The position numbers were made by a program, and so were the translations under genes. Shown piece by piece: positions 21,439 through 44,762 of a DNA stretch of 64,000 nt; position 1 is the stretch's first letter, and each line of letters starts with the position of its first letter. This DNA is from Candidatus Sulfotelmatobacter sp. (GTDB lineage Bacteria; Acidobacteriota; Terriglobia; Terriglobales; Acidobacteriaceae): positions 1 through 64,000 of the forward strand of contig JAOAPI010000177.1 in assembly GCA_025462865.1 (NCBI GenBank). The letters are read 5' to 3'. The notes under the pieces were generated by a model. That model saw nothing but the letters and a program-made list of their open reading frames with translations. It did not search any database and was not told where the DNA came from.

Positions 21439-21547
21439 TTGCTGAGTGCTCTCTTTTTGCGGGAATTCACTCTGGTCAAGTAACGCTCTAAATGTTGGCC
21501 AAATTTCTTTGGCACATGGGCATACGGATGTAGGAGGGTTTTCTCTT

Positions 21548-24500: not shown

Positions 24501-24778
24501 GAGGATTCGGACTCTTTCAATGGGATCTAGGCGTACACCGCGACTTCGCGATCTCCGAATCCGTGAAGCTGGAGTTTAGAGCGGAGATGTTTAATTTTTT
24601 AAATCATCCCAACTTTGCCCCGCCCGTCGGGGATATAACGTCACCTGACTTTGGTCGTTCAACGGAGATGTTAGGGCAGCAATTGAGTGGGGGCTCCCTC
24701 GGGGCCGGAGGCTTTAGTTCGCTTTATCAAATTGGCGGTCCGCGATCGATGCAAATGGCTCTAAAACTGACTTTCTAA
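21548..24778 (+). CDS. Oar-like TonB-dependent receptor (cassette 1)
   Basis: A 1,076-residue outer-membrane receptor. It has a signal peptide (MSYTRLVCATAVAVIVIAGM), a carboxypeptidase-regulatory-like domain (about 26-110), a plug (ENLPMNGRSFQTLIYLTPGV), a VDAMQEFRIQTS segment, APEYGRTPGAQISIVTRSGS, and a barrel ending MQMALKLTF with terminal Phe. ATG 21548 follows AGGAGGG; earlier in-frame starts lie before the signal peptide. Such receptors import large or rare ligands at the cost of TonB energy. Its position directly before two isopeptidase-like genes, and opposite a lasso operon, argues that it takes up lasso peptides. Confidence 0.88.
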   Translation: MSYTRLVCATAVAVIVIAGMALGQTESATITGKVTDTSSAAVTGADVELRSVERGTNQVVTTNGAGIYEFSSVQPGQYRMVVRHAGFREIDLLSFIVNVQDRLEENFRLQVGSVSESVTVSGSSALVNTESATVSTVIDRNFAENLPMNGRSFQTLIYLTPGVVPVAIGNSGYDSGQFSVNGQRAASNYWMVDGVSGNVGSSTSNQGQQIAGAVGTSSVLGGTNSLVSVDAMQEFRIQTSSFAPEYGRTPGAQISIVTRSGSNALHGSAFDYLRNDLLDANNWFNGYVNNPALPKARERQNDFGGTLSGPVLRNKTFFFFSYEGTRLRLPTTALSTVPSASARQSAIPAMRPYLNAYPLDPSQPDLGDGTAQFNSSYSDPATLDDYSIRIDHRLTDKLTLFGRYNNSPSMISQRGIGFNSLSTVDVNRIAAQQLTIGSSWMLSSRVMNEVRFNYSTTTASGGSRLDSFGGASPLQSLPLPNPFNASNASWGLVIGSLQHADLGEGILARNEQRQFNLVDNLTAQMGAHDVKVGMDYRRLTPVRDPNKYLQNVFFSDIPSADGGALFGKFLASQVGATFLFQNISLFAQDTWKIGPRLVLTYGLRWDTDLPPSTISGPTLLALTGFSGLGDLSQLAFAPAGRPLFKTSWGNIAPRIGAAYQLSQRQDWQTVARGGFGVFYDLASSETANLVSNTGYPFVGGFNFVSGGTFPLFPQAAAPPPIVPPSVTNPENISGFDPNLKLPYTLGWNVAVEQGLGSKQRLTLTYVGASGRRLIQSVGVVAPNAITSQAFLSLNGGVSDYNALQAQFERRLARNLQILASYTWSHSLDNGSAGSAGTGSNIPSSTQNLGNRGPSDFDLRHVFSTGVTYSIPGITHGKGINHVTSGWSLQSILQAQSARPVPIQDGNFFRLTNGFNPDIRPDITPGIPLYLYGTQFPGGRAINNTPGAVPGGCPNGSPSVGPFCDPPVDANFNAIRQGTLGRNVVRGFGLFQWDLGVHRDFAISESVKLEFRAEMFNFLNHPNFAPPVGDITSPDFGRSTEMLGQQLSGGSLGAGGFSSLYQIGGPRSMQMALKLTF

Positions 24779-27233: not shown

Positions 27234-29624
27234 ATGACTACGACCTTTAATAGCGACCAAGCAGATACCCTTCGTCAATGGGGTTCTGGATTTCGTTACC
27301 AGCTGAAAGAAATCGGCAGATTATTCCCGGTACTCTTGTTAGCGGCCAGCGTCAGTCAGCAGGGAGCGCATGCCACAACGCAACCCAACGGCACTTTGCG
27401 GCCGTTCACGGTAGCCGATTCAATTGAAATGACCCATTTCATCACCCCGCCGGAAGAGCTAAAGGGGGTTCCTCCTGATTTTTCCCCAGACCGAAAAAGC
27501 TTCCTCATTGTCACGGAAAAAGGAAATCTAAAGAGCAATACGCGGGACTACACGCTACGCAAGTACGACGTCGATAACTTGAAACCAGGTGTCATCGTCG
27601 CGATCTTTAGATCGTCTTCTAATCGCGCCGGCATCGTGAAACCGGTTTGGCTGGATAACAAATCCATTTCGTTCATTGGTGAGAATCCAGGTGAAGCTCC
27701 CCAAGTGTATATGGTTCATTGCCGGTCACGAAAACTGAAAAAGCTGACTTCGGATCCGATGGGCGTGGAAAGATATGCCATCTCACGAGATCGCAAAACA
27801 ATTGTGTTCTTAGCACACGCCCCTGGGAACAAAGCTGAAATCAAATGGCGCGAGGAGCACGGTTTTGCGGTAGAGAACGAATCACTTGCTGACCTCACAT
27901 CCGGCAATTGGAAAATCCCCCACAATGTGTGCAATTTCTACGTGAAGACCACATTCTCAGCGAGGGTTGAGCGAGTTGAATCGGAGACATTTTTCTGTGG
28001 GTACGGCCGTCCACCCGACATCTGGCTGTCTCCTGACGGACGATATGCGGTGACCGAGAAGTTTACGAGTTCCGCGCCGTCAAGATGGGGAGAATATGAG
28101 GAAGGCGCGCTTCAACAGCTAGTCCGTGAGCAGCAAGGAGGTGTGTACAAGACTCCTAACAGTGACCTTGTGCAAGCTGTGCTGGTCAACACGACATCGG
28201 CCACTCTCACACCTCTGCTGGACGCACCGATATCCACAAAGACCTCTCTAACAGCTGCCTGGTCGGCAGATAGCCAGTCGGTCGTGGTCGGCAATATCTA
28301 CTTACCTCTCGACACAAACGACCGCGCGGAGCTCACACGACGTAAATCGTCCACCGTAGTTGCGGAGGTGGACATACCTAGCCTTTCATACCGCAGGATC
28401 GTTGATCTGCCAAAGGACGAGAGATGGGAAGTGCGAAGAAGTAGTTCACCTAAAGGTTTTCTGGTTGATGCCTGGAAAATTGACGACGGAGAGATCTTCA
28501 AGAAGCTACCTGCGAGAGAGTTCCGTTGGCACCGAGGCGAATGGGCTCAGAACCCTGAATATGCCGAATATCATGACAGCGTAAAGATTGTTGTCAGTCA
28601 GTCCCTCAACCACTGGCCGAAGCTAGTGAGAGTGGACCCGGAACAAAAGAGCGAGAGTGTAATACTTGATTCCAATCCACAATTCAAAGATGTTCAGTTC
28701 GGGCGAGTGGAAGCGATCGACTGGATAGGAACGCGCGGCGAGGCACTTATGGGAGGGCTGATTTATCCCACCGACTATCATGCCGGCGCCCGCTATCCTC
28801 TTGTGATTCAGACACACGGGTTCAGTCCCGACACATTTATAACTGACGGCGCCTTTACTACAGCTTTTGCGGCTCAGGAACTCGCCAACAAGAATGTAGC
28901 TGTCCTACAGATTGGTGAGAGCTCGCTTTATGAGCACGCCCAAGGAACAACGGATTTTGGACCGGTTCAAATGTCACAAATCGAAAGTGCCGTGGATTAT
29001 CTGGACGCACTAGGCATCATCGACCGCGAGCGCGTAGGATTAGTCGGTTTCAGTATCACTGGCTTTCAAGTGATCTATACCTTGGCAAATTCGAAGTACC
29101 ACTTCAAGGCAGCTACATCTGCGGAGGGCAGAGATTGGGGATATTTTCCCTATATTGCTCGGGGAAACAGCCAAGAATGGGTGGCAGAAGAAGAAGCACC
29201 TTACGGCGGAGCGCCTTGGAAAGATAACTGGAGGTCCTGGATGGAGAACTCGATCAGCTTTAACTTTGACAAGATCCACACGCCATTGCGTTTGGAATCG
29301 GACGACAATAGCTCTGCAATGGAGGTACTCAACGAATGGGAAAAGTTTGTAGCGCTGAAAATCATGCTTAATCCCGTAGACTTAATTTTTGAGACAAACG
29401 GCACACATCCGGTTGTGAAGCCGTGGGATCGGCTGACGTCGCAGCAGGGAAATGTAGACTGGATGACCTTCTGGTTGAAAGGCGAGGAAGACCCCGATCC
29501 CACAAGACAAGAACAGTATCTACGCTGGCGGGAAATGCGAAAGTTCCAGGACTCGGGGGGGCATCAAACTGCTGGAAGTGGAGGTCACGAAAAGGGGGAT
29601 CCAATTGCGGCTCCCCCTTTGTAA
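27234..29624 (+). CDS. S9 prolyl-oligopeptidase family protein, probable lasso peptide isopeptidase 2
   Basis: A 796-residue close paralogue of the preceding gene, alignable along its whole length and mostly identical. Candidate catalytic residues are Ser607 (GFSITG), Asp690 and His725. Export signal is LFPVLLLAASVSQQGAHA. It differs mainly in the N-terminal ~45 residues and in a Gly/His-rich C-terminal extension after REMRKFQDS. AGGAAG precedes ATG 27234. It is the last gene of the sigma/anti-sigma/receptor/peptidase operon and converges on the lasso precursors at 29627-30271. The duplication may allow linearisation of different cores. Confidence 0.75.
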   Translation: MTTTFNSDQADTLRQWGSGFRYQLKEIGRLFPVLLLAASVSQQGAHATTQPNGTLRPFTVADSIEMTHFITPPEELKGVPPDFSPDRKSFLIVTEKGNLKSNTRDYTLRKYDVDNLKPGVIVAIFRSSSNRAGIVKPVWLDNKSISFIGENPGEAPQVYMVHCRSRKLKKLTSDPMGVERYAISRDRKTIVFLAHAPGNKAEIKWREEHGFAVENESLADLTSGNWKIPHNVCNFYVKTTFSARVERVESETFFCGYGRPPDIWLSPDGRYAVTEKFTSSAPSRWGEYEEGALQQLVREQQGGVYKTPNSDLVQAVLVNTTSATLTPLLDAPISTKTSLTAAWSADSQSVVVGNIYLPLDTNDRAELTRRKSSTVVAEVDIPSLSYRRIVDLPKDERWEVRRSSSPKGFLVDAWKIDDGEIFKKLPAREFRWHRGEWAQNPEYAEYHDSVKIVVSQSLNHWPKLVRVDPEQKSESVILDSNPQFKDVQFGRVEAIDWIGTRGEALMGGLIYPTDYHAGARYPLVIQTHGFSPDTFITDGAFTTAFAAQELANKNVAVLQIGESSLYEHAQGTTDFGPVQMSQIESAVDYLDALGIIDRERVGLVGFSITGFQVIYTLANSKYHFKAATSAEGRDWGYFPYIARGNSQEWVAEEEAPYGGAPWKDNWRSWMENSISFNFDKIHTPLRLESDDNSSAMEVLNEWEKFVALKIMLNPVDLIFETNGTHPVVKPWDRLTSQQGNVDWMTFWLKGEEDPDPTRQEQYLRWREMRKFQDSGGHQTAGSGGHEKGDPIAAPPL
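29591..29620. terminator. Convergent terminator-like hairpin
   Basis: AAAGGGGGA at 29591-29599 pairs perfectly with TCCCCCTTT at 29612-29620, with a 12-base loop. It overlaps the last codons of the peptidase gene and lies seven bases beyond the stop of the first precursor gene. It could terminate transcription from both sides. It lacks a long T-run, so the strength is uncertain. Confidence 0.55.
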
Positions 29625-29626: not shown

Positions 29627-29755
29627 CTATTCGTCTGCTTCGTATGCCGGATCTGTCTTCCCGCCCACATCTAACACGTCTTCAATTTTCGCCATGGTGG
29701 ACTGGATTTGAGAAATGGCTGAGTAGCCTTGAAGCTCCGGTTTCATGTACGTCAT
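29627..29755 (-). CDS. Lasso peptide precursor 1 (cluster 1)
   Basis: A 42-residue peptide. It begins MTYMKPELQGYSAISQIQS, continues TMAKIEDVLDVGG and ends KTDPAYEADE. The leader has YMKPEL, the YxxPxL motif recognised by PqqD-like B1 proteins in lasso biosynthesis. A perfect AAAGGAGGTGA ribosome site precedes ATG 29755. The core start is uncertain: cutting after Gln18 gives Ser1 with Glu7 or Asp8 as ring-closing residue. Unlike its sisters there is no Gly at that place. The last nine residues are almost the same as in precursors 2 and 3. It is the promoter-distal gene of the operon. Confidence 0.75.
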   Translation of the reverse strand: MTYMKPELQGYSAISQIQSTMAKIEDVLDVGGKTDPAYEADE

Positions 29756-29878: not shown

Positions 29879-30010
29879 TTACTCGTCGGCTTGATAGGCC
29901 GGGTCCGTCTTGATTCGTGGTTCAGTTACGTCGTTGTTCTTATCTGGGCTTCCGTCCTGAATAGCTGCGAGGGCTGAATACCCCAGAAGCTGTGGCTTCA
30001 TGTACGTCAT
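29879..30010 (-). CDS. Lasso peptide precursor 2 (cluster 1)
   Basis: A 43-residue peptide with leader MTYMKPQLLGYSALAAIQD and predicted core starting GSPDKNNDVTEPRIK, ending TDPAYQADE. The leader YMKPQL fits YxxPxL. A core of Gly1 with Asp8 gives the common eight-residue macrolactam ring; cutting one residue earlier would give Asp1-Asp9, which is less likely. A good AGGAGGTGAG ribosome site precedes ATG 30010. 126 bases separate its start from the stop of precursor 3, and it sits between precursors 1 and 3. Confidence 0.78.
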   Translation of the reverse strand: MTYMKPQLLGYSALAAIQDGSPDKNNDVTEPRIKTDPAYQADE

Positions 30011-30136
30011 CTTGCTCACCTCCTTTCTATCGTTTGATTAAAATGCAGGTGGCGTAGACAGTATGCAGTCGCCTATTGCCCTGCAGTAGTAGGTGGACCT
30101 TGATTTGAAAGAGAACATCCACGACTTCATCGAGTG

Positions 30137-30271
30137 CTACTCGTCGGCTTGGTAGGCAGGGTCAGTTCTCGAATGTCCTCCCTCGAGAATGTCGAGGTTT
30201 TTGTTTGGGCTTCCGTCCTGAATGGCAGCGAACGCCGAGTAGCCCAGAAGCTCTGGCTTCATGTACGTCAT
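30137..30271 (-). CDS. Lasso peptide precursor 3 (cluster 1)
   Basis: A 44-residue peptide with leader MTYMKPELLGYSAFAAIQD and predicted core GSPNKNLDILEGGHSR followed by TDPAYQADE. YMKPEL is the leader recognition motif. Gly1 and Asp8 fit an eight-residue ring, as in precursor 2, with a long 17-residue loop and tail. AAAGGAGGTGA precedes ATG 30271. It starts 47 bases after the lasso cyclase stop, so it is the first precursor to be transcribed. Residues between ring and tail vary among the three, while the tail is constant. Confidence 0.8.
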   Translation of the reverse strand: MTYMKPELLGYSAFAAIQDGSPNKNLDILEGGHSRTDPAYQADE

Positions 30272-30318: not shown

Positions 30319-32235
30319 CTATGCGTTAAGCGCCATGGCAGCTTTCACTTTGCTCGCGACTTCAATTCCAGAATTCACCAACACTCCACGTTGAACCACG
30401 TGTCGGAGCCATGCTTCGAGAGTCACAGTACGCATTACCCGGATCAAGGGCACTTTGTCGCTGTTTCTGAACGCGAGCAATGCCTCGCGAAAAAGTTGTT
30501 GGTCGACAATTCCAAATCGCGAAGTGGCCATGGATTTGGTCAGTGCGGAGAGGCTGTCCCATTCCGTCGAAATTGCTACCCGCGGGCCACGACTGGCAAA
30601 GGACTTTCTTCGTCTTTCTAGAATTTCAGCCGGAACGATGTCGGCCATTGCCCGCCTCATTAACGACCGTCGGTAACCTGGACGCAACAATTGCTCACGG
30701 GGTATCGCAAACGCGAATTCCAGAACGTCCCGATCGAGAAATGGATATCTCTTCTCGAAGGCCGGCTGTGTGGGAAGATACTTGGTCGCTAGCTGTCTGC
30801 GAATGGTATCGAGTGCGCCCATGTTGGCTTGGAAGCTTGGTAAAGGTCCAAGAAAACTTAATCTTCGCCGAAATCCACCAAGTATGTGTGTATGCCGTGC
30901 GACGAAGCGATCGGTTAACCACGGCGCCGGGTGGCGAGATTTGGATTGAGGAACCAGAGAGCCTGGCAAGAAATCGGATAGAGCTTCCGCCAAGATATGA
31001 AACCATGGTCGCCGTTTGGCAAGCGCCCATAGTTTCAGGTTGGTCGCTAACTCACGAAATTTTCCTTGTACGAACAGATTCTGTAATTCGGGCATGGGCG
31101 TGGGCACGCCGCCCATGACCTCGTCGCCTCCTACGCCTGATAGGACTACCCGAATTCCGTTTGATTCGAGGAAACTTGCCTGTTGCCGGAAAGGTTCCTT
31201 CGGCTGCCCACTCGTTTGGCTGGGCAGGGCCGCAAACGATTCGGTTTCGTCAAAATTAAAGATCGATATACCGCTGAAGTTGATATGGAGGCCGGTACGT
31301 CCCCTCTGCTCCTCTACTTTGGAAAAAAATGGCAGCTCATTGGCATTCGGTTCGTCATCGTCGTAAAACGACAACGTTAAGATTTCAGATATGTCGGGAC
31401 AAGTTGAGGCGATAGAATCTGCCATACACGTCACAGAAGGAGAGTCCATTCCCCCGCTGAGTTCAGCGCAAATGGGACGATCGGATCTAAGTCGCCGGTG
31501 AACTGCTTCTTTAAAGACACTTCGGAAGTGCTCCTCATAGTCTCGATCGGACCCATACACAATCCTTTTGCCGGAATTGAAATCCCAATATCTTGCGATG
31601 GTTTCTCGATCGGGCCGAATGGAGACAAATGATGATGGGGGTACGGCGCGAATTCCTACGTAAGGGGTTTCGTCCGCTGCGGGATACGATCCCAGCCAAC
31701 CGGCAACATAAGCATGGTTCAACTCAAACTGCTTTCCGGAGAGAGTAACTAACGGATCGAGTACAGAACTCCACGTTACACGCTCTAGGTCATTTGAATA
31801 ATAAAGCGGACGAACGCCCAAGATGTCTTTGGCCAGGACGAGCAGCCGATCGCGCGCATTCCATATGGTGAGGGCCCAATCACCCAGGAGTTGGGCGAAG
31901 CAACCTGTGTCCCATCGATCAAAGCTGGCGGCAACGATCTCTACATCAGTTGGCTCAGTGCTCAGCACGCCCCTGAGGATGCGAATGAGGTCTTTCCGAT
32001 TATCTAATCGTCCATCCCACACCAACACCGTTCCAGAGCGCAAAATGTAAGGCTGTTTCTCGCGCCTCGACTCCGCAGTCGAATGTAAGGCATGGTGGAC
32101 AAGGGTCAAACCTTTGGTTGTGTATTCGCTCACTCCATCGGGAGCATAAGGACAAAGGATGGAGTTTGCCGCCTCGACCTCATGCGGAGCGACGCGCCGA
32201 CCGTCGAAATTCCAAATTCCAAATTGGATACTCAT
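30319..32235 (-). CDS. Lasso macrolactam synthetase (protein C, asparagine-synthetase-like), cluster 1
   Basis: A 638-residue asparagine-synthetase-B homologue. The N-terminal ~200 residues are a glutamine-amidotransferase fold that begins MSIQFGIWNFDG, lacking the Cys2 needed for glutamine hydrolysis. Residues ~225-600 are the ATP-pyrophosphatase domain with PP-loop SGGMDS (about 260-265) and SGVGGDEVMGG. In lasso pathways protein C adenylates the Asp/Glu side chain and closes the ring with the core N-terminus. ATG 32235 follows AGGGA; an in-frame GTG at 32319 is an alternative. It is followed by the three precursors, which identifies the substrates. Confidence 0.9.
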   Translation of the reverse strand: MSIQFGIWNFDGRRVAPHEVEAANSILCPYAPDGVSEYTTKGLTLVHHALHSTAESRREKQPYILRSGTVLVWDGRLDNRKDLIRILRGVLSTEPTDVEIVAASFDRWDTGCFAQLLGDWALTIWNARDRLLVLAKDILGVRPLYYSNDLERVTWSSVLDPLVTLSGKQFELNHAYVAGWLGSYPAADETPYVGIRAVPPSSFVSIRPDRETIARYWDFNSGKRIVYGSDRDYEEHFRSVFKEAVHRRLRSDRPICAELSGGMDSPSVTCMADSIASTCPDISEILTLSFYDDDEPNANELPFFSKVEEQRGRTGLHINFSGISIFNFDETESFAALPSQTSGQPKEPFRQQASFLESNGIRVVLSGVGGDEVMGGVPTPMPELQNLFVQGKFRELATNLKLWALAKRRPWFHILAEALSDFLPGSLVPQSKSRHPAPWLTDRFVARHTHILGGFRRRLSFLGPLPSFQANMGALDTIRRQLATKYLPTQPAFEKRYPFLDRDVLEFAFAIPREQLLRPGYRRSLMRRAMADIVPAEILERRRKSFASRGPRVAISTEWDSLSALTKSMATSRFGIVDQQLFREALLAFRNSDKVPLIRVMRTVTLEAWLRHVVQRGVLVNSGIEVASKVKAAMALNA

Positions 32236-32346
32236 TGGAAGTCCCTTTTGAAAGCTATCGTTGCCGTTATTTGTGTTCACGAGTAGCGGCCCCATTGCGA
32301 GATCAACGTTGTCGCTCACGTTCCTTCAACTGCGATTTGCTTCAAC

Positions 32347-32721
32347 CTAACAACGATCCACCACGGCGTACATTTCTTGCATGTAAGGTTTGTCATTGAC
32401 CACCCTGCCGTCGACCTCGGCCCACGCGTGGGATTTGAAAGGTGACTGTTGAGTTCCGATGATCATTTCACCGCTGACTCCATACTTCCTCAATAAGCAG
32501 ACTGTCGCTGCGGATCTTTGAAGACATAGGACCTCTTTCCAATACCAAATGCAGGCAATGTCTATGGCATGGCACACACGTTCAACAGCATGGGGGGCGA
32601 CCGGTACCGTTGCTGTCGGACAATTCCGCACCTTCTGATAAAGAGCGTGGAAATTGCCGTTGGCGATATAGAGGTCAATCAAGATCAACTTCGCGTAGGC
32701 TTGTAAAGTGAGAAATCGCAT
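32347..32721 (-). CDS. Lasso leader peptidase (protein B2, transglutaminase-like), cluster 1
   Basis: A 124-residue transglutaminase-superfamily protease. The catalytic triad is visible: Cys66 in CLQRSAATVCLLR, His98 in SHAWAEV and Asp110 in VVND. Stand-alone B2 proteins cut the leader from the precursor after delivery by B1. Its size is usual for a separate B2. The start is ten bases after the stop of the fusion gene. It is intact and shares motifs with the fused B1-B2 of cluster 2 at 46949-47677. Confidence 0.88.
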   Translation of the reverse strand: MRFLTLQAYAKLILIDLYIANGNFHALYQKVRNCPTATVPVAPHAVERVCHAIDIACIWYWKEVLCLQRSAATVCLLRKYGVSGEMIIGTQQSPFKSHAWAEVDGRVVNDKPYMQEMYAVVDRC

Positions 32722-32731: not shown

Positions 32732-35700
32732 TCAAACGGTTAGCGTCAACTGATCGCACAAGAACGCCACGCGATCAGACAGTGCCTCCACCCGAGTGCT
32801 TAACGGCAAGACCGGCGCGTGTCCGCGATATTGGCTGTAATCGAGAATGATGGGACGCGGTGATGTGTTCGTCGCTTGCAGGCGTGCAACCATTTTGCGT
32901 GCATGAAACGGATTGCAGGTCTGATCTGAATCCCCGGAGACCATCATCACTGCCGGATATTGCGTATTTCTGACGATGCAGTGATAAGGTGAATAGCTCC
33001 ATAGCACCCTAAAGTCGTCGGCATTGTCGGCAGTGCCGAATTCTTCCTTCCACTTTACGGCTCCATCGACCAGGTGGTAGCGAATCATGTCGAGAAGAGG
33101 GGAGATACAAAGGACAGCGCGAAATAGCTCTGGCGCCTGCGTCATAGCCACCCCGACCAGCAATCCTGAATTTGATCCTCCGAAAATGGCAATCTTGTCC
33201 CGCGCAGCTATCCCTGTATCTATCAACCATCCAGCCGCGCTCAGAAAATCGTCGAAGGCGATCTGGCGCTTCTGCCTCCTTGCTGCTTCGTGCCATTCAG
33301 CGCCAAATTCACTTCCTCCGCGAATGGCAGGCAAGGCGAACACACAACCGACGCTCATCAGAAAAGCCACCAGTACACTGAACTGGGGTGTCATCGGATG
33401 GCGAAACCCCCCGTAGGAGGTGAGGATCACCGGATTGTCGTTCCGATCCAACACTTCGCGCTTCCCAACAAGAAATATGGGGATTCTCGTGCCATCTTTA
33501 GACTCGTACCAAGCTTGTCGGTGATTGTAGGTTTCCTTGTCGAGCGAAATAGCTGGGCGATTCCAGGGAATTCGTTTGTTGTTGGGAATTGAATATCTAT
33601 GAATCGCAGGCGAGAGTAAAAACGACTCCGTTTCAAATAAAACTTCCTCATTCTTTTGGTCTCCCGCAATGAGGCGGACTGACTCATCGTTGTGGACAGG
33701 GATTTCTCCAATTTGCCTCCCAAACAGATCAAACACGAGCACCCTGAAGGAAGTGCCTTCGACGTAGGAGACTACGATGTAGCTCTGAAAAGCTATCCAG
33801 TGCCATATCATGTGGTCGCGAGCGGCCACAATATCGCGAAACTCGTGGTTTCCATTCGCACCTAAACAGAGCTCGACGACACGATAGTTCGGAGAGTCTT
33901 GTCTTGTGAGCAGAAAAAAACGATCGTTGACAATTTGTATGGAGGACAGGTCGTTTCCGGTCAGAACCTGCTTAGCCGGAAGACCGGAGCCCACAATGTG
34001 TACGTAGCAGTCCGTAATTCTCGTAGGGACAAATCGTTGGATCATTATCAGTAAATGAATACCACCCGAAACGAAAGTCAGGCGCACGTCTTTGATCGTG
34101 CCTGCATCGAACAGGACCCGATCATCTTTTAAAGATGTGCCCAATTCATGTTGATAGATCGCTTGAATCGATGCCTCTGACTGTCGAAGTGAATCCTGCA
34201 CGTAGTAGAAGCTCTGGGAATCAGGCGCAAAGGAAAAGGCGCGTAGATAGGCGAGTGGTAAGCCATCCGGAAGTCGCGTGCTGGAAGCTATGTCCAATAG
34301 TTCCACGCGGCTTGCCCTCTGGCCGCCCTCTTTGACCTCATAGGCAAGTATCTTTCCGTTCGGCGACACAGCAAGCGGCTTTACTGCGGTGTGATTGCTT
34401 ACGTTCAAATCTGCAGGATCAACTAATAATTGATCCTGGCCGTTCGCATCCCGCGTGTATATGGACGGTTGTTCCTGACGAGGGAGTCGCTTTCGGAAGA
34501 AGTAGCGTCCACCCTCGACCAAAAGTGTGTCATAGGTTTCTATTTCGAGGAATGCGCGGATCTGTGTCTTGATACTTGCGCGCGCGGGCAGCCCATCGAG
34601 GTACTCCCGCGCGAACGCGGACTGAGCCCTAAGCCACTGACGCGTGAGCGGAGAGTCTTGGTCTTCAAGCCAACGATACGGATCGGTGACCGGAGTTTCA
34701 TGGATTATTTCCGTTACCGGATTGATTTCCGATTCTGGCGGGTGAGGAAAGGAATCACGTAAGCTCCCTCCATTTAGTCTGGATGCTTCTTTTTTCATGA
34801 TTCGCGCTAGGCTACGTAGGTATCCTGCGATGCCGGGGCGTGCGAGCAGCGCTGGGGTGCGCCACGAATTGCTGGCTATTGCGCTAGCAAATACTGCTAC
34901 AAGTCTGGCGAACTCAAGTGCGCGATCAAGCTGTTCCGCGGAATGAGCTGACAGATAGGCAAGCCAATGCTGTTTGTACTCGTAGCGCAGGCGATGACCT
35001 AGCTCGGAATCAGTCGGGTGGCTTTTCCGAAAATGAGCAACCAAATATTCGAAGGTTAAGGTTGGATTGCCGACGTGAGCGGCGGCCCAGTCTATGAAGA
35101 CGCAATTCTGTTCACCGATCAGTATATTGCCGGGATTAAAATCGCTATGGCCAATGACATCGGGAAGGTTAAGCCTTGAAAGCTCGCTTATCGCCTCACG
35201 CAGGATAACAGCGATCTCGGACAACTCCCTCGTAGTGAGTGGCGCTGGCGGATTTGTCGTTTGCCGCTCCATCAAATCGCCCATAAATTCGAAGAAGGGA
35301 TCGACGAGGGCCTGCAAGGTCGACAGTCGTAAATCCACGCAGTTCATTCCTAAAAATTCAGTAGCTCTGCAAATCGATTTAATCTGCAGTTCTGCCAGAC
35401 GACCAGCGACCATTACCCACGTATCGAGTTCAGTACATTCCCGAAGGTTCGTCTCACCACCACTCTCCATCAACCATGCGGTCCACGATGAATTTAAAGA
35501 AACGATCGCAGGAAGATAAGTTGGAAACCATTCAGCCAGTTGTACTGTGTGAGCAAACTCTTGTGCGCTGGACTGTCCAACCGCTTTAAGCCAAAGCGAC
35601 CTAGTTGCGGTTTCGAACCTGATCAGAGCGGTATCGTCGCTTCCGCTTAATTGGCGGATCGAGACTGGCTCCAAACCAGAAACCTGCCGAACCCAGTTCT

Positions 35701-36157
35701 CGACGTCGTATTTCCACCCGAGTCGGGTAAACGGACCTACATCATTGCCCGACGGTCGCGCCATCGCGCTCGAGTGAGATGTTGAGAGAAAACTTATGTC
35801 GCCGTCGTCGGGAAGAACTGCCAAGGCATCAAGTACGGAATGCTTGGTAAGGCCAGGTATAACTCCACAATTTCTCGGCGCCTCAAGAGCAGCATAGAAG
35901 TGACCTTGTGGTGCAGAAGGGGCGCAATCGAGTTTCAAAAGCGACGTGGTGATGTCCCATCTTTCCTGTACGGTTGAGGTTATTTTCTCCACGATGCGGG
36001 TGAACTTAGGGACAGCGACTTCGGGAAGTGCAAGCTTTCCATCGGTATTCGTCAGCAACAGACGAGTGCCTGTGTCGTCGAAGATTACAAGCCGATAGCG
36101 TTCACTCTGGTCGACGTCGTACGGCACATCTCGAATTGGAGTTATGGCAGAGGCCAC
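32732..36157 (-). CDS. Nudix-like / APH-type kinase / prolyl-oligopeptidase fusion in the lasso operon
   Basis: An 1,141-residue three-part protein. Residues ~20-125 look like a Nudix fold without the Nudix box (YRLVIFDDTGTRLLLT). Residues ~140-460 are an APH/choline-kinase-type phosphotransferase with Brenner motif HSDFNPGN (337-344) and metal-binding Asp356 in VFIDW. Residues ~475-1141 are an S9A prolyl oligopeptidase: PYRWLED, propeller, YGGF, Ser995 in GGSNSG, Asp1078 in SGDSD and His1113 in RGHAP. The arginine following the Asp in classical POP is replaced by threonine. No signal peptide, so it is cytoplasmic. GTG 36157 overlaps the B1 stop by one base. Role inferred: peptide phosphorylation and/or cleavage or immunity. 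Confidence 0.85.
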   Translation of the reverse strand: MASAITPIRDVPYDVDQSERYRLVIFDDTGTRLLLTNTDGKLALPEVAVPKFTRIVEKITSTVQERWDITTSLLKLDCAPSAPQGHFYAALEAPRNCGVIPGLTKHSVLDALAVLPDDGDISFLSTSHSSAMARPSGNDVGPFTRLGWKYDVENWVRQVSGLEPVSIRQLSGSDDTALIRFETATRSLWLKAVGQSSAQEFAHTVQLAEWFPTYLPAIVSLNSSWTAWLMESGGETNLRECTELDTWVMVAGRLAELQIKSICRATEFLGMNCVDLRLSTLQALVDPFFEFMGDLMERQTTNPPAPLTTRELSEIAVILREAISELSRLNLPDVIGHSDFNPGNILIGEQNCVFIDWAAAHVGNPTLTFEYLVAHFRKSHPTDSELGHRLRYEYKQHWLAYLSAHSAEQLDRALEFARLVAVFASAIASNSWRTPALLARPGIAGYLRSLARIMKKEASRLNGGSLRDSFPHPPESEINPVTEIIHETPVTDPYRWLEDQDSPLTRQWLRAQSAFAREYLDGLPARASIKTQIRAFLEIETYDTLLVEGGRYFFRKRLPRQEQPSIYTRDANGQDQLLVDPADLNVSNHTAVKPLAVSPNGKILAYEVKEGGQRASRVELLDIASSTRLPDGLPLAYLRAFSFAPDSQSFYYVQDSLRQSEASIQAIYQHELGTSLKDDRVLFDAGTIKDVRLTFVSGGIHLLIMIQRFVPTRITDCYVHIVGSGLPAKQVLTGNDLSSIQIVNDRFFLLTRQDSPNYRVVELCLGANGNHEFRDIVAARDHMIWHWIAFQSYIVVSYVEGTSFRVLVFDLFGRQIGEIPVHNDESVRLIAGDQKNEEVLFETESFLLSPAIHRYSIPNNKRIPWNRPAISLDKETYNHRQAWYESKDGTRIPIFLVGKREVLDRNDNPVILTSYGGFRHPMTPQFSVLVAFLMSVGCVFALPAIRGGSEFGAEWHEAARRQKRQIAFDDFLSAAGWLIDTGIAARDKIAIFGGSNSGLLVGVAMTQAPELFRAVLCISPLLDMIRYHLVDGAVKWKEEFGTADNADDFRVLWSYSPYHCIVRNTQYPAVMMVSGDSDQTCNPFHARKMVARLQATNTSPRPIILDYSQYRGHAPVLPLSTRVEALSDRVAFLCDQLTLTV

Positions 36158-36555
36158 TAGTTTTCTCCTATCGCTTTTGTTCTGTGGGCCGGCTTCTTAG
36201 GGCGCCGAAGACTTTTGAGCCAGATTGGAAGTTTCGCGGTGAGGCTGCCGAACCACCGATTTCCGCCGGCAATGTCGGTTGAGGAAAGGAGATGTTCCCG
36301 CTGGAGTGCGGACACAAACTCAAGGATGTCTTGATTTACCCGCTCAGGAGAAACTTGAAACTCATTCACCAACGCATCTGTGATTTCGTCTAGTGGTCGG
36401 TGCTGTTTAAGCATCTTCCAGATCCTGGAGCCTACCTGATCCAGAGGGAAAGTGCGTCCGTGTAGGGGATCAAGCAGTACGATGCCATCGGGAGTTTCGG
36501 TCTCTCGAATTCGGTCCGCCGGATAACTGGCCTGTTCCTGGACTTGAACTTGCAT
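36157..36555 (-). CDS. Lasso RiPP recognition element (protein B1, PqqD-like), cluster 1
   Basis: A 132-residue protein with a PqqD-like fold: GIVLLDPLHGRTFPLDQVG, SRIWKMLKQHRPLDEITDAL, VNEFQVSPERVNQDILEFV. B1 binds the YxxPxL leader motif and delivers the precursor to B2. It has a basic C-terminal tail of ~35 residues beyond the usual ~85, ending RTKAIGEN. It is the first gene of the minus-strand operon B1, fusion, B2, C, precursors. It overlaps the next gene by one base. Confidence 0.82.
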   Translation of the reverse strand: MQVQVQEQASYPADRIRETETPDGIVLLDPLHGRTFPLDQVGSRIWKMLKQHRPLDEITDALVNEFQVSPERVNQDILEFVSALQREHLLSSTDIAGGNRWFGSLTAKLPIWLKSLRRPKKPAHRTKAIGEN

Positions 36556-36899: not shown

Positions 36900-38714
36900 A
36901 TGCTTTACTCGCTGAAATCCTGCAACGATGGAAGTGGCAAATGGTTGGTCCGGTATCTGCTGCCGATGTGGCCGCGGGCTCTCTTCAGCATGATCGCTGC
37001 GATTGTCAGCGGCGTCCTGGCCATGATCGATCCCCTCTTGATTCGGAGACTCATAGATATCGACCTTCCGGAACATCATCAATCGCTCTCTCTGTTGATC
37101 GTTTTGGCTGTGCTTATCTGCCTTTTGGGTCGATCACTTCTCCTGTTGTGGAGCAACTTTGTGAATTTCACCGTGCAGCAGGATTTTGGACAGATCTTAC
37201 GAATCTCCATCCTTTCTCAACTCCAACGCCTTTCGGCCGATTATCACGAAGCAACACCCGTAGGCGAGAAACTTACCCGCTTAGAGAACGACGTGGATCA
37301 AGTTGCTGAACTTGGCTCGAACCTGATTACCTCTTCTGTGCGAGCTATCGTTTTACTCGTCGCAAACATGATCGTGATGTTGAAGCTTGACGCTTCGATC
37401 ACCATGTTCCTGCTGCCGGCGGTCGCCGGCTTTCTTTGGATCCGCTCTCGCTACGGTCGGACTCTTCGGAAGCTTTCTGACTCTGCTCAAGCAATTACAG
37501 GTAGGAGTGCTGCGGTCCTCAATGAATACCTGGCAGGAATTTTGCAGATTCAGCTGTTGGGGGCGGAGTTGATGCTCGCCGAAAAAGCGGCAGCCGCGTG
37601 GAAGGACACGATCGGGGTTCGCCGGAATCAGCGGAGCAAAGAGTTGCAGTATGCAGCTGCTGTGAACGCTTTACTCGCAATATGCACCGCGCTTGTGCTT
37701 GGTTTTGGAAGCTATCTGACATTGAAGGAGCGACTAACACTGGGCGGACTTGTCGCGTTTTACACTTGTGCCACCCGAGTGTTTGAGCCGGTAGCAGTTG
37801 GCATGGATGTGTTCTCCAAAATCCAGCGGGTAGGCGCAAGCATAAGGAGAATTCGCGAACTTCTAGAAGTGAATTCCACCGTCGAAGATTCGGGCACTCA
37901 CCGCATCTCTTCCGCTGAGCTGAAATCCGGCATAACTCTGGAATCGGTCGGCTTCCGCTACGGAAAAGAGAATATTGCTCTGCAAAATATCTCAGTTCGG
38001 ATCGACCCCGCAGCGTCTCTCGGTGTCGTAGGGCCAAGTGGATGCGGGAAAAGTACACTCGCAAAACTCCTGGTCCGCCTAGTCGATCCTTATGTTGGCT
38101 GTCTTCGCCTGGATGGGCGATTCTATCGAGATTATGCGCTTTCATCCATTCGTGCGGCCGTCTGTTATGTGCCGCAGTCTCCGCTTCTGTTCAATGGCAC
38201 AATTCGGGACAACCTGAGTTTTGCGAATCGCGATGCTACTGCAGCCCAGATTGACTCGGCTCTCGAAGTCGCACAGCTTTCATCGCTATTAGAACGGCTT
38301 CCGAAAGGTGCTCATACCGAGATTGGACCTGGTGGTTATAGTCTGTCGGGAGGAGAAAAGCAGCGGATCGCGATTGCGCGTGCCTTATTGCGTGGAGCGC
38401 CCGTGTTAGTCCTGGATGAAAGCACATCGGCTCTTGATGGTCCTACTGAGCAGCTTATTCTGCGAGATATTGCCATGATTTATGCGAGTCGCAACCTCAT
38501 TGTCATATCTCATCGATTGCTATCAATCTCATGGATGAACCGTATCATTGTGTTGGATCGCGGTCGTGTAATCGCGGTTGGCAATCACACCGCGTTGTTC
38601 CGTGAATGCGACCTCTATCGCTACATGTTCGAATCTCACAAGGAGGGCGCCGCGATCGAATCAGCGCTGCAGCCTTCGCTCGGAATAATCCAGCCGATTG
38701 GTCAGGGCTCTTGA
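36900..38714 (+). CDS. ABC exporter (lasso protein D)
   Basis: A 604-residue fused permease-ATPase. Residues ~20-290 carry six membrane helices (ALFSMIAAIVSGVLAMIDPL, LLIVLAVLICLLGRSLLLLW). The nucleotide-binding domain has Walker A GPSGCGKST (about 379-387), signature LSGGEKQR, Walker B VLVLDEST and the H-loop VISHR. In lasso clusters protein D exports the mature peptide and confers immunity. ATG 36900 has no strong ribosome site, so the N-terminus could begin slightly later. It diverges from the biosynthetic operon. Cluster 2 has no transporter, so this one may serve both. Confidence 0.87.
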   Translation: MLYSLKSCNDGSGKWLVRYLLPMWPRALFSMIAAIVSGVLAMIDPLLIRRLIDIDLPEHHQSLSLLIVLAVLICLLGRSLLLLWSNFVNFTVQQDFGQILRISILSQLQRLSADYHEATPVGEKLTRLENDVDQVAELGSNLITSSVRAIVLLVANMIVMLKLDASITMFLLPAVAGFLWIRSRYGRTLRKLSDSAQAITGRSAAVLNEYLAGILQIQLLGAELMLAEKAAAAWKDTIGVRRNQRSKELQYAAAVNALLAICTALVLGFGSYLTLKERLTLGGLVAFYTCATRVFEPVAVGMDVFSKIQRVGASIRRIRELLEVNSTVEDSGTHRISSAELKSGITLESVGFRYGKENIALQNISVRIDPAASLGVVGPSGCGKSTLAKLLVRLVDPYVGCLRLDGRFYRDYALSSIRAAVCYVPQSPLLFNGTIRDNLSFANRDATAAQIDSALEVAQLSSLLERLPKGAHTEIGPGGYSLSGGEKQRIAIARALLRGAPVLVLDESTSALDGPTEQLILRDIAMIYASRNLIVISHRLLSISWMNRIIVLDRGRVIAVGNHTALFRECDLYRYMFESHKEGAAIESALQPSLGIIQPIGQGS

Positions 38715-40395: not shown

Positions 40396-41573
40396 CGGCG
40401 CACCAACAATACGAGGAACTCTGCACACTAGCTGCACTCGGAGACATTTCGGAGGACGAGTTTGAGGACCTGAAAAAACATACCGAAGAATGTGCAGGGT
40501 GCAAAGGCCTGGTACGCCAGTTGCACGAAACGTATGGGGTGCTTACCGCTGGTTCAGCGATAGATGATCAATTACCGGAGGGTATGCGCCGTCGTTTTGA
40601 CCAGCAAGCTCGACTGAGAGGGATATTGCCTCCCAGGCCTCGTGGCTTGGTCCAACAGATCCGGTCAGCAGCTGCCGGCAAAGAAGTCCTTATCAGCCTC
40701 TCTCTGGCCTGTATTGTGCTTAGCATCTGCTTGGCCGCTGCCTTCTTTGAACTCGCCTACGTGCGGAAGCACCTCTCAGCCACACAGCGTCAACCCAGCA
40801 TTCCTTCGAACGATTACCTAACACTTGTAGAACAGAATCAAGCGCTTCAACAACAACTGGGAAATTCTGAGAAGGAAAGGGAAGCGGTTGCCGAAAAGCT
40901 CAAAATTCAGCAACTACAGGCCGATGAAGACTCCCAAAGACTATATGCGTTGAACTCGAGAATCGCGACCCTTGTGGGAGACAGTACCGAACTGCGGGAC
41001 CGACATGCTGCCAGTCAGAAGGCGGTAGCGGAATTGCAGCAAACAATTCAACAATTAGAGACGCAGCGCGACGCGCAAGCGACCGCCTCCGTTGTAGAAG
41101 AGGCGGAAATCAGAAACCTGAAACAAGAGCTGCAGCGAGCAACCGAACAAGTTGAAGAACAGCGCCGACTCAACGTGGCAACGGCTCAAGTTAGAAAATT
41201 GATCGAAGCTCGAAATCTGCACATCGTGGATATTCACGATACAGACGAAAATGGCAGACAACTGAAGCCTTTCGGTCGAATCTTTTCGGACGGTAAGCAA
41301 CTGCTTTTCTATGCCTATGATCTGCCACATCCAAGGCCTGGCGAGGCTATTGTCGCATTTCATGTTTGGGGCGAACGCACAGGTTCTAAACAATCACCGA
41401 GGAGCTTGGGTGTTTTTCAGCCCGACGACGTTTTGGATGACCGTTGGTTGATTAGAGTACAGGAACCTAGTGTGCTCTCTGAAATCGATCAGGTCTTTGT
41501 CACAGTATCGGCCAAGCCGGAAGGAAAGCGATTCTTGAGCGTTCGGCTCGATACAAGACCGAACCATCCTTGA
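40386..41573 (+). CDS. Anti-sigma factor with periplasmic conserved domain (cassette 2)
   Basis: A 395-residue protein. N-terminal ZAS motif HTEECAGC, one membrane helix (VLISLSLACIVLSICLAAAF, residues ~101-120), a coiled coil (QALQQQLGNSEKEREAVAEK), then a periplasmic domain that begins LIEARNLHIVDIHD and ends RPNHP. That domain is clearly homologous to the one in the cassette-1 anti-sigma. ATG 40386 with AAGGAA overlaps the sigma gene, and its stop overlaps the receptor start. It probably sequesters sigma until the periplasmic domain receives a signal from the receptor. Confidence 0.82.
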   Translation: MSLTAHQQYEELCTLAALGDISEDEFEDLKKHTEECAGCKGLVRQLHETYGVLTAGSAIDDQLPEGMRRRFDQQARLRGILPPRPRGLVQQIRSAAAGKEVLISLSLACIVLSICLAAAFFELAYVRKHLSATQRQPSIPSNDYLTLVEQNQALQQQLGNSEKEREAVAEKLKIQQLQADEDSQRLYALNSRIATLVGDSTELRDRHAASQKAVAELQQTIQQLETQRDAQATASVVEEAEIRNLKQELQRATEQVEEQRRLNVATAQVRKLIEARNLHIVDIHDTDENGRQLKPFGRIFSDGKQLLFYAYDLPHPRPGEAIVAFHVWGERTGSKQSPRSLGVFQPDDVLDDRWLIRVQEPSVLSEIDQVFVTVSAKPEGKRFLSVRLDTRPNHP

Positions 41574-44500
41574 TTACTTTTCTCTTCTCTCCCGAATCCG
41601 TGATTCTCAGGCAATCGCTTTGGCTTGCGATCTTTATGGTCGCATTATGCCGCGATGCTGCGAGTCAGATAGATTCTGGCGTTGTGGCCGGCATGGTTAC
41701 GACAACAACCGGCGAAGTCATAAAGGACGCACATGTAGCATTAATTGATGCTGATCGAAATCTCAGAACTCGTGTAGACGCCAACGCTACCGGTCTCTAT
41801 CTGTTTCCCGATGTTCGGCCAGGTCATTACAAATTGGAGGTGACCGCGCCTGGGTTCAAGACAGTGCTGCTTTCTGGAATCATCGTCAACGTTCAGGACA
41901 GTATCCAAGAAAACTTCCAACTGGCTGCGGGCACCTCCTCTGAGACCCTCACAGCCATTTCTTCCACTGCGCTCAGCAAGATGTCTGGTTCTGTTCGAAC
42001 TGCGATTGACCAAACACTGATGCGAGAATTGCCGCTAAATGGAAGATCTTTTCAGACGCTGTTTCAATTGACGCCAGGGATTGTCATTGCACAGACGAGC
42101 TTTGCCAGCCAAGGGCAATTTAGTGCGAACGGCCAACGTACCAATACCAACAATTTCTTGGTCGATGGCGTGAGTGCAAATTTCGGAATGGCGGCCGGTG
42201 TAGATCCAGGTCAATCGGCTGCCGGCACATTGCCAGCGCTCAGTGCATTTGGCAGCACTAACATTCTGGTGCCAGTGGATGCTGTTCAGGAGTTTGCGAT
42301 CGAGACATCCACGTACGCCCCGGAGTTCGGGCGAATGCCAGGTGCGCAGATCTCGATTGTCACGCGCTCCGGGACCAACGAATGGCATGGTGATGTCTAT
42401 GACTACTTGAGAAATGCGATCCTAGACTCGAATGATTGGTTCGCAAATCGTGACCACCTTCCTCGGGCCGGCATAAAGCAAAACGACTTCGGTGGAAACA
42501 TTGGGGGACCGCTGCAAAAGGGACATACGTTTGTTTTTGCGTCCTTCGAAGGGCTCCAGCTGCGACAACCGGCCATCGTTGAATCTCTTGTTCCATCCTT
42601 TGCGGCGCGTTCTGCCGCGGTGCCGGCCATCCGTCCTTTTCTTGATGCCTATCCCCTGCCGCAATCACATGACGATAACAATGGGTTAGCTCCCGCAATT
42701 GCTAGCTTCTCTGATCCGTCCAATCAGGAGAGTGGAAGCATCAGGTTCGATGACGAACAGGAAACCTACGGGTGGTTTGCTCGGGTAAACATAGGCAACT
42801 CCAGCCGGTCTCAACGCGGCGCCCAAGACAATGCATTGAGTTCGGTTACGATCACTGAATTCTCCCCGCGCACTCTGACTTTTGGGGCACGACAAACTTG
42901 GCGATCTTTGGCCAATCAATTTCGGGCGAATCTGAGTTCAGCAACCGTCTCGACGAAGAACATCCTGGACGGCTTCGGCGGAGCGGTTCCGCTTCCAATG
43001 GATGTTCCGTTTCCTGCTCCGTTCAATGACGGCAATAGTCTCTTTCAGTTCATTCCTGGCGCGTTTGGCACTAATATGCAACTGCTGATCGGGCGAGGTG
43101 TTCACAATGAGCAGCGCCAGATTCAGATGGTTAATACGGTGTCCTGGCAGCTGAAGAATCATCTCTTGCGTGTAGGCGCAGATGTTCGTTTCCTGAGACC
43201 TACTGTGACACCCGCACAATACGAACTTGCTTCAGTTTTTTCAGGCTTACCTTCGGTTCTTAACGCGCAAAGCTCAATTGACGTCGTAGAAGCGCAGCTC
43301 AGGGTGAAATCCAGGTTTGATGATTATTCTATGTTTGCTCAGGACACGTGGTCACTGGCTGATCATTTGACGGCAACATTCGGATTGAGATGGGATTACG
43401 CGCCTGCACCATCTGGACGCGCCAGCAATGGCCTCTCTCCTTTCATATTAAAAGACTTCATTTCGCTTTCTCACTTTTCAATTGTTCCTAATCAACCTTT
43501 GTATAAATCAGAAGTGAAGAACTTTGCGCCGAGAGTTGGCTTCGCTTATCGACTCTGTACATGTCGAGCGTCTGTGGTGTTAACGGGGGGTGCGGGTGTG
43601 TTCTATGACTCGACTAATAGTGCGGCGGGAAACGCCTTCAGCGGAAACTTTTTCCCGTTCGCTGCGTTGAAAATTCTGGGAGGAGCACAGTTCCCATTGA
43701 CCCTACAAGAGTCGTCCCCGGCCGTCATAGGCACAACACCCATTATTCCACCGATTGCTGCTTACGCGCCTATTCTACGAACACCGGTTGTTTCGCAATG
43801 GAATATCTCCCTTGAAGGAGTGCTGAACAAGAATCAAGTCGTGAGTCTTGGGTACGTCGGTTCGAGCGGACATGAACTCTATCGAACCGAAATGTACACC
43901 GGAGGCCACGCTGGGGTACCAACTCAGTTGGAGGAAATTCTTTTCACCAATAATGCTGGCGTTTCAAGTTACAACGCTTTGCAACTAACGACCCATTTGC
44001 TGACCAAGGGTCTTGATCTATCGGCTTTTTATACGCTGTCCCACTCCTTGGATAACGTCTCAACTGACGCCGTATTCCAGGGCATACCAACCCGATTCAT
44101 CGATCCCGCACTAGACTACGCTCGGTCTGATTTCGACATAAGACATAGTGCTTCATTGGCCTTTGCTTACCAAATTCCGTCCTGCGATTCGTGCGACTCT
44201 TTGCGAGGTCTCTTCAGCAACTGGAGCATGAACGTGATTTCAATTCTGCGATCCGCACCCCCAGTCGATGTCGTCGTGTCTCGGGACATAGGCTTCGGCG
44301 TCTATGACTTTCGCCCCGACGTCACGCGTAGTGAAACTTTGTACTTACAAGATTCCAATGCGCCTGGAGGAAGGCGCTTGAACCCGGATGCGTTTTTGAT
44401 TCCGCCTATACGGCAAGGTGCTCTTGGGAGGAATGCGCTATCAGGATTCCCGGCTTTTCAGACGGACATCGCCCTATCAAAGCAGGTACTGCTGCGAGCT

Positions 44501-44746: not shown

Positions 44747-44762
44747 GGAAGAGCGTCCTAAA

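What the first reader, a model, noticed from the sequence alone, without database searches (positions are those of the whole stretch)
32732..36157. Nudix-like/APH kinase/prolyl-oligopeptidase fusion inside a lasso operon
A single 1,141-residue protein joins a degenerate Nudix-like domain, a phosphotransferase with intact HSDFNPGN and IDW motifs, and an S9A peptidase with an apparent Ser995-Asp1078-His1113 triad. It is locked between B1 and B2 by one- and ten-base spacings. Lasso kinases and isopeptidases are known as separate proteins; I know of no described fusion of this kind. It could phosphorylate and cut the peptide, for example acting on the conserved Thr/Tyr tail, or serve as cytoplasmic immunity. 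It lacks a signal peptide, unlike the two downstream S9 peptidases.
Basis: partly seen in the sequence, partly recalled or inferred. Interest (0 to 1): 0.92.

Follow-up and report, generated by a model that had tools for sequence, protein, structure and literature searches.

The report
Fused lasso-peptide kinase and peptidase
An acidobacterium has welded together two enzymes, a peptide kinase and a prolyl-oligopeptidase, that its relatives in the genomes searched keep as separate neighbouring genes for making lasso peptides; the fusion looks like a one-off, but the enzyme pair behind it recurs widely and its job has yet to be tested.

Summary
One minus-strand frame (32732..36157, 1141 aa) joins a Nudix-fold domain without its catalytic box, an intact APH-type kinase and a true S9A prolyl oligopeptidase (POP), between lasso B1 and B2. 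The fusion is a one-off: of 44 distinct lasso clusters compared that carry both genes it is the only fused one. In the 24 relatives printed a POP start overlaps the kinase stop in another frame; here the junction is 5 nt shorter than in 15 of 16 measured relatives, merging the frames. The real novelty is the module. POP is optional and forms its own branch, with Cys at an active-site position (52/52 lasso POPs) that is Val in 24/24 non-lasso ones. Precursors of kinase clusters end in [ST]xx[AG]YxxDE; the Ser/Thr is present in 55/65 kinase-positive against 8/23 kinase-negative clusters. Glu after the Tyr goes with POP (32/41 against 6/24), though not in two of the window's own three precursors. 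Tree-based tests of both links are underpowered. Best reading: the kinase phosphorylates the tail Ser/Thr and POP processes the tail during biosynthesis (inferred, untested). A kinase in such clusters is in print; the searches made showed no lasso POP. New variant of a known kind.

The parts
32732..36157 (-). Fusion gene, 1141 aa: Nudix-fold domain (about 18-132), APH-type kinase (about 148-463), S9A prolyl oligopeptidase (about 470-1141)
34763..36157 (-). Kinase half (residues 1-465), a separate gene of about 465 aa in the relatives seen; K191, E200, H337, D339, N344, D356-W357
32735..34762 (-). POP half (residues 466-1141), a separate, optional gene in relatives; S995, D1078, H1113; W1036; lasso-type signature C1081 and R1111
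36157..36555 (-). Lasso B1 (PqqD-like RRE), one-base overlap with the fusion start
32347..32721 (-). Lasso B2 leader peptidase (Transglut_core3), ten bases after the fusion
30319..32319 (-). Lasso C, asparagine-synthetase-like cyclase
30137..30271 (-). Precursor 1, tail TDPAYQADE
29879..30010 (-). Precursor 2, tail TDPAYQADE
29627..29755 (-). Precursor 3, tail TDPAYEADE
27234..29624 (+). AtxE2-type isopeptidase-like S9 protein (NF033523 3.9e-45, below that model's cut-off)
24827..27163 (+). Second AtxE2-type isopeptidase-like S9 protein (NF033523 4.9e-46, below that model's cut-off)
21446..24778 (+). TonB-dependent-receptor-like protein; the name is my reading from position and sequence, the only NCBIfam hit is weak (E 0.06)
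36900..38714 (+). ABC transporter, divergent from the operon

Best explanation
It is a bifunctional tailoring enzyme of an acidobacterial lasso-peptide pathway, made by an in-frame fusion of two neighbouring genes that overlap in relatives. Shown here: the domain make-up, the intact catalytic residues, the lasso operon, the two-gene state in relatives, and the tail motif [ST]xx[AG]YxxDE whose Ser/Thr goes with the kinase. Inferred: B1 presents the precursor; the kinase, helped by its box-less Nudix domain as a binding platform, phosphorylates the Ser/Thr four residues before the tail Tyr (Thr in TDPAY[QE]ADE here); B2 removes the leader and C closes the ring; the POP domain then cuts in the tail, most likely after a small residue next to the Tyr (P|A|Y), with its altered active site selecting the tailed, perhaps phosphorylated, peptide. 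Fusion would couple the two steps one to one. My odds: fusion real and lasso-linked 0.96; kinase acts on the tail Ser/Thr 0.6; POP acts on the tail in biosynthesis 0.4.
For: Separate, overlapping kinase and POP genes in relatives, and in the same genome two paralogous clusters, one with and one without POP. Ser/Thr at -4 in 39 of 44 kinase-positive against 7 of 19 kinase-negative clusters; in clusters fetched later 16 of 21 against 1 of 4; pooled 55/65 against 8/23, Fisher 1.6e-5 (not corrected for kinship). In kinase-positive peptides that position is Ser/Thr in 51 of 57, while none of the other eleven positions from -12 to -1 exceeds 32%. One cluster of the same genus with no kinase detected keeps POP, and its three tails all lack Ser/Thr at -4 (L202). 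Among kinase-positive clusters Glu follows the Tyr in 24/27 with POP against 6/17 without, later 8/14 against 0/7. Lasso POPs have Cys at the position of pig POP Val644 in 52/52 (and in one truncated row), non-lasso POPs Val in 24/24, and Arg two before the catalytic His in 43 of 44 kinase-positive clusters but Trp in 7 of 8 kinase-negative ones. Precedents: the APH-type peptide kinase CaoK (PMC9486802) and FlaP, a RiPP POP selective for the fully modified peptide (PMC10885120).
Against: No activity is shown. Phylogenetic pair tests on the cyclase tree are underpowered: kinase versus Ser/Thr goes the same way in 2.5 of 4 pairs on average, POP versus Glu in 2.2 of 5 (1.9 same, 0.5 opposite of 7 when kinase-negative clusters are included), none significant. 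The window's own precursors have Gln after Tyr in two of three, and POP-positive L202 has Gln in two of three and Pro in the third. Arg1111 is not strictly tied to the kinase: L202 has Arg without kinase, L225 Trp with kinase. Eight of 23 kinase-negative clusters do have Ser/Thr at -4, among them L114, L206 and several of the YxDWE type. Ser/Thr at -4 fell from 39/44 to 16/21 in the later set. Pro within four residues before the Tyr is no commoner with POP (15/38 against 6/18 peptides).
Confidence: 0.5

Rival explanations
1. The POP domain is a disposal or self-protection protease: it degrades unthreaded or re-imported linearised peptide in the cytoplasm, while the kinase alone is biosynthetic.
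For: POP is optional; its presence changes 15 times on the cyclase tree. Most clusters also have isopeptidase-like and receptor-like genes, so linear peptide may return. POPs generally degrade short linear peptides (recalled).
Against: POP overlaps the kinase gene in the biosynthetic operon and is not with receptor and isopeptidase; lasso POPs have a distinct active-site signature and separate from non-lasso ones in the tree; Glu after the tail Tyr goes with POP.
Confidence: 0.3
2. The kinase phosphorylates another residue: the tail Tyr, or a ring Ser/Thr as BsfK does on Ser3; the tail motif is only a docking site.
For: BsfK acts on Ser3 (PMC10368454); the tail Tyr is present in 56 of 57 kinase-positive peptides; window precursors 1 and 2 have Ser at core position 3.
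Against: By eye, no ring-region Ser/Thr is constant in the cores printed. Tyr is also kept in 21 of 36 kinase-negative peptides, a weaker link to the kinase than that of Ser/Thr(-4) would need only in part: Tyr 56/57 against 21/36, Ser/Thr 51/57 against 11/36.
Confidence: 0.25
3. The fusion is an assembly or base-call artefact joining two overlapping genes.
For: Draft genome of 189 contigs; in relatives the two frames overlap, so a small length error could merge them.
Against: From a conserved kinase Glu codon to the conserved POP Asp codon there are 105 nt here against 110 in 15 of 16 relatives and 107 in one, so a single-base error does not explain it. The only start codon near the junction in the POP frame is Met454, inside the kinase C-terminal helix; the next is residue 546, so POP has no start where relatives have theirs.
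Confidence: 0.04

Closest known systems
Acidobacteriaceae lasso clusters of Duan et al. 2023 (PMC10368454)
   Same: Precursors with Ile/Val at leader position -2, and the statement that all such clusters found encode a kinase or phosphotransferase
   Different: The kinase studied there (BsfK, Bradymonas) is of HPr type; 'oligopeptidase' does not occur in the main text; the passages read give no APH substrate site, tail motif or fusion
Soil lasso cluster BGC 482.1 (PMC9064862, Table 1)
   Same: Order B1, 1404-bp APH-family gene labelled Kinase, B2, C, two precursors, from acidobacteria by Blastx
   Different: No POP in the rows shown; no function tested in the passages read
HPr-kinase-type lasso kinases PadeK, ThcoK, BsfK
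   Same: Peptide kinases of lasso clusters acting on the linear precursor; B1 helps BsfK
   Different: Other family (no HPr-kinase hit for the window protein); they act on the C-terminal Ser or Ser3
CaoK and other APH-type kinases of class V lanthipeptides (PMC9486802)
   Same: APH-like kinase that phosphorylates Ser/Thr of a precursor peptide
   Different: Works with the HopA1-like lyase CaoY to dehydrate; none of the nine window proteins scanned matched such a lyase
FlaP (PMC10885120) and the POP of the myxarylin pathway (PMC12951456)
   Same: POP in RiPP maturation; FlaP prefers the fully modified peptide
   Different: Those are assigned to leader removal; here B2 should do that, and the POP has Cys at the Val644 position and Arg two before the catalytic His
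AtxE2 lasso isopeptidase
   Same: S9 superfamily serine peptidase in a lasso cluster; two AtxE2-like genes lie beside this operon
   Different: P0001 has no hit to the AtxE2 model; its POP half matches prolyl endopeptidases

Membership tests
Lasso peptide biosynthetic cluster | Precursor, RRE (B1), transglutaminase-like B2, Asn-synthetase-like C | tested here: met
Lasso peptide biosynthetic cluster | Acidic residue at core position 7-9 for a ring to the N-terminus | tested here: inconclusive
   Window cores have D9, D9 and E7/D8, but over 56 kinase-positive cores this is at shuffle level, 17 against 17.7, while Lys followed by D/E at +6 or +7 holds in 55
APH-type kinase (PF01636) | HxDxxxxN catalytic loop, second Asp, N-lobe Lys and Glu, bilobal fold | tested here: met
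   PF01636 hit in 35 of 37 family members
APH-type kinase (PF01636) | ATP-dependent phosphorylation of a peptide | not testable with these tools
   needs assay
HPr-kinase-type lasso kinase | Match to an HPr-kinase family | tested here: not met
   No such family among Pfam or NCBIfam hits up to E 1
Nudix hydrolase | Nudix fold | tested here: met
   Foldseek, 278 PDB matches at E 0.001 or better; of 50 listed the first three are chains of 3rh7 (titled putative oxidoreductase), the others Nudix proteins by title or to my knowledge; TM about 0.5-0.6
Nudix hydrolase | Nudix box GX5EX7REUXEEXGU | tested here: not met
   0 of 37 family members; no Pfam NUDIX hit in 24 N-termini
S9A prolyl oligopeptidase | Propeller plus hydrolase domain, Ser-Asp-His triad, S1 Trp | tested here: met
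   best profile match 2bkl, 2.6e-167
S9A prolyl oligopeptidase | Cleavage after Pro | not testable with these tools
   W1036 kept, but the Val644 position is Cys and the Arg643 position is Thr here
AtxE2 lasso isopeptidase | Match to NF033523 | tested here: not met
   no hit of P0001 up to E 1

The most novel reading that the evidence does not exclude
These clusters make a lasso-like peptide by a phosphorylation-gated route: the APH kinase marks a Ser/Thr in a conserved C-terminal follower, a dedicated POP reads the mark and removes the follower, and the macrolactam is anchored on a Lys at fixed distance from an Asp/Glu (K-x5/6-[DE]) instead of on core residue 1. The window's protein is the natural one-polypeptide version of the kinase-protease pair.
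Probability: 0.15. Interest if true: 0.88.

Novelty: new variant of a known kind. Interest (0 to 1): 0.6.

Why it matters
If the inferred steps hold, lasso pathways have a second class of peptide kinase (APH fold) with a readable substrate motif, and a protease that trims the tail end of the peptide, which would set where the lasso ends. The fusion gives one protein in which both steps can be tested at once, and the conserved tail makes the question testable in dozens of clusters. It also warns that lasso products predicted from acidobacterial precursors with the whole tail, or with a ring to residue 1, may be wrong.

Tried and rejected
Fusion as a conserved architecture: rejected, 1 of 44 distinct kinase-plus-POP lasso clusters whose POP was compared (29 and 15, the window included). 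Among kinase matches listed, the next longest open frames were 625 aa and 635 aa. Clusters with a broken or cut-off POP (L069, L098) are not in the 44.

POP cutting specifically after Pro of TDP|AY: not supported as a general rule; Pro near the tail is no commoner with POP. Extra N-terminal trimming by POP: Lys lies further from the core start with POP (mean 4.9 against 3.9, p 0.015), but kinase-positive clusters without POP show offsets too, so I did not adopt it.

A strict link of Arg1111 with the kinase (29/29 against 0/6) broke in the later set and is reported as a tendency. Nudix by sequence: no hit in Pfam or PDB; it rests on the model. A joint alignment for the whole fusion (A5) had low identities that I took for misalignment and was not used, so the full-length fusion and the POP half were not modelled. 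A plasmid hit in Nostoc has no annotated lasso genes around it. PHROGs gave nothing.

Rows dropped before counts: clusters L161 (upstream cut off), L166 and L170 (no credible precursor), L168 and L169 (partial kinase frames); L168's peptide lacks the tail motif, so counting it would lower the kinase figure to 39 of 45. Clusters without a recognised precursor do not enter tail counts. L156 and L157 are near-copies counted as two, both kinase-negative with Ser at -4; L069 and L070 are near-copies counted as two kinase-positive. Two mis-framed non-lasso rows (L171, L190) were dropped. The precursor finder needs a leader motif and a purine-rich site, so odd precursors are missed. The later set (36 clusters with C, 27 new, 21 kinase-positive with a precursor) is not fully independent: it comes from overlapping draws of the same family, deduplicated on cyclase and precursor sequence, and its four kinase-negative clusters were fetched as POP or B2 hits. 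Kinase loci came from searches with the kinase, so its share among all lasso clusters is not measured here. The genome-contig scan used two short patterns and can miss diverged relatives.
Full report
What is there. The frame 32732..36157 lies on the minus strand, starts with GTG and runs 1141 codons without a stop. Pfam finds APH at 286-375, Peptidase_S9_N at 473-866 and Peptidase_S9 at 925-1137. B1 ends on the first base of the fusion's start codon and B2 begins ten bases after its stop. C and three precursors follow; two AtxE2-type isopeptidase-like genes and a TonB-receptor-like gene face the operon, and an ABC transporter diverges from it.

Domains. Residues 1-150 model well (pLDDT 85) and match Nudix structures in the PDB with Foldseek E values from 1e-6 and TM-scores of about 0.5-0.6; the Nudix box is missing from all 37 family members examined, and no sequence search finds Nudix. 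Residues 1-465 model at pLDDT 90 with an APH/choline-kinase fold, best 3i0o at 1.1e-10. The lysine and glutamate taken as those of the N-lobe (K191, E200) and D339, D356 are invariant in 37 rows. The rest is a genuine prolyl oligopeptidase by sequence: the profile of 18 such proteins matches Myxococcus prolyl endopeptidase 2bkl (species recalled) at 2.6e-167 and oligopeptidase B at 4.7e-75 at best. The POP half was not modelled.

The fusion is a one-off. The kinase half was found in 33 of 399 genomes of the class and 54 of 398 of the family, overlapping draws with different queries and cut-offs. Of 43 stretches annotated (window, two paralogous clusters of the same genome, 40 fetched), most show the order B1-kinase-(POP)-B2-C; four have none of B1, B2 or C near the kinase (L063, L076, L081, L082), four more lack B2 or C (L047 and L075, B1 only; L067 and L073, no C), and in L059 the kinase follows C. 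The 28 loci of the genome-contig scan all bear acidobacterial names. In the genus, 45 genomes, the only listed match spanning both halves in one frame is the window's. Counting distinct lasso clusters whose kinase and POP were both compared, 1 of 44 is fused. The two genes separate: POP without a kinase beside it was seen in L111-L115, L160, L202 and L206 (some contigs are short, so a kinase elsewhere is not excluded), kinase without POP in 17 clusters of the first set with precursors.

How it arose. In the 24 relatives printed, a POP start codon overlaps the kinase stop and the POP frame is +2 to the kinase frame. From a conserved kinase Glu codon to the conserved POP Asp codon there are 110 nt in 15 of 16 relatives measured, 107 in one, and 105 in the window, which merges frames that are two apart. 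Downstream of Met454 there is no in-frame start codon until residue 546, so POP cannot begin where its relatives do. This argues for a real fusion in the genome as assembled.

The kinase's likely substrate site. Precursors of kinase-positive clusters end in [ST]xx[AG]YxxDE. In 57 such peptides Tyr is present in 56, and the position four before it is Ser or Thr in 51; none of the other eleven positions from -12 to -1 exceeds 32%. By cluster it is 39 of 44 with kinase and 7 of 19 without (Fisher 5.8e-5). In 21 kinase-positive clusters fetched later it is 16, in four kinase-negative ones 1. Pooled p is 1.6e-5, not corrected for kinship. L202, of the same genus, has POP, B2 and C but no detectable kinase, and its three precursors lack the Ser/Thr. 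The kinase-less lasso cluster in this same window also lacks the motif. Against: eight kinase-negative clusters have it (among them L114, L206 and several of the YxDWE type), L046, L059, L061, L068 and L102 lack it with a kinase in the first set, and the pair test on the cyclase tree has too few changes to be significant.

The POP. Its presence changes 15 times on the cyclase tree. Lasso POPs fall apart from 24 non-lasso acidobacterial POPs in the tree. All 52 complete lasso POPs aligned have Cys where pig POP has Val644 (numbering, and its place in the S1 pocket, recalled); all 24 non-lasso ones have Val. Two residues before the catalytic His there is Arg in 43 of 44 kinase-positive clusters (Trp in L225) and Trp in 7 of 8 kinase-negative ones (Arg in L202); the 24 non-lasso ones have neither. 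This suggests, without proving, that POP was fitted to a substrate that differs with the kinase. Among kinase-positive clusters Glu follows the tail Tyr in 24 of 27 with POP and 6 of 17 without; later 8 of 14 and 0 of 7. The window's own precursors fit in one of three. The tree-based test is again not significant.

Mechanism. The operon order and the overlapping genes favour a role in making the peptide. APH-type kinases phosphorylate RiPP precursors (CaoK; PMC9486802, passages read), lasso kinases act on the linear precursor (PMC9266682 and PMC8498205, passages) and BsfK is helped by B1 (PMC10368454, first two of six parts and passages read), and a RiPP POP can require the modified peptide (FlaP; PMC10885120, passages read). 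From this I infer: phosphorylation of the tail Ser/Thr, leader removal, cyclisation, tail processing by POP. Only the anatomy and the correlations are shown.

What is in print. PMC10368454 states that all its Ile/Val(-2) clusters, acidobacterial ones included, encode a kinase or phosphotransferase, and Table 1 of PMC9064862 lists an APH-family kinase gene in a soil lasso cluster assigned to acidobacteria. Searches for lasso peptide with prolyl oligopeptidase and kinase, Acidobacteria, phosphotransferase, aminoglycoside phosphotransferase, fusion protein with kinase and protease and phosphorylation with isopeptidase showed no lasso POP or such fusion in the listed titles and abstracts; most of the listed papers were not opened, and PMC13352647, PMC8498205 and PMC9266682 were searched by term only. 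The library lacks most subscription papers and no supplements were read, so this is weak evidence of absence.

Verdict.

Noticed in passing
window 29627-30271 (three precursors) and the precursors listed: Cores of kinase-positive clusters carry Lys followed by Asp/Glu at +6 or +7 in 55 of 56 (shuffle mean 7.6, maximum 18 in 2000 shuffles), while an acid at the canonical core position 7-9 is at shuffle level (17 of 56); later set 20 of 22 and 10 of 22. The ring may be anchored on Lys rather than on core residue 1, if the leader ends just after Ile/Val(-2).
   Followed up: partly
window 41570-47677: A second lasso cluster without kinase or POP: receptor-like gene 41570..44746, C 45026..46939, one frame with B1-like and B2-like parts 46949..47677, precursor 44854..44991 without the Tyr tail.
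   Followed up: partly
own genome, contigs C33, C74, C93, C118, C149 (two), C164, C187: Eight lasso B2 places in one genome, against at most two in each of the other 44 genomes of the genus searched.
   Followed up: no
L063, L076, L081, L241-L246: Further kinase paralogues with no B1, B2 or C beside them, mostly about 6-13 kb from a kinase of a lasso cluster on the same contig (L081 about 32 kb).
   Followed up: no
L223, 2719-5304: POP and B2 lie in one open frame of 862 codons: another possible fusion, at the next junction of the same operon type.
   Followed up: partly
L152-L158, L204, L205: A related lasso type with two C genes, no kinase or POP, other enzymes upstream in several, precursors ending [AG]YxDWE, mostly with Asp/Glu at +8 after Lys in L152-L158.
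   Followed up: no
window 24827-29624 and 31 isopeptidase-like proteins aligned: The two window AtxE2-like proteins have no GxSxG; the conserved serine sits in GFSxT in the eight rows printed, and one His is conserved.
   Followed up: partly
L009, 3332-8449: The paralogous cluster with separate kinase and POP has a receptor-like gene but no isopeptidase-like gene in the stretch; a protein of another kind stands in its place.
   Followed up: no
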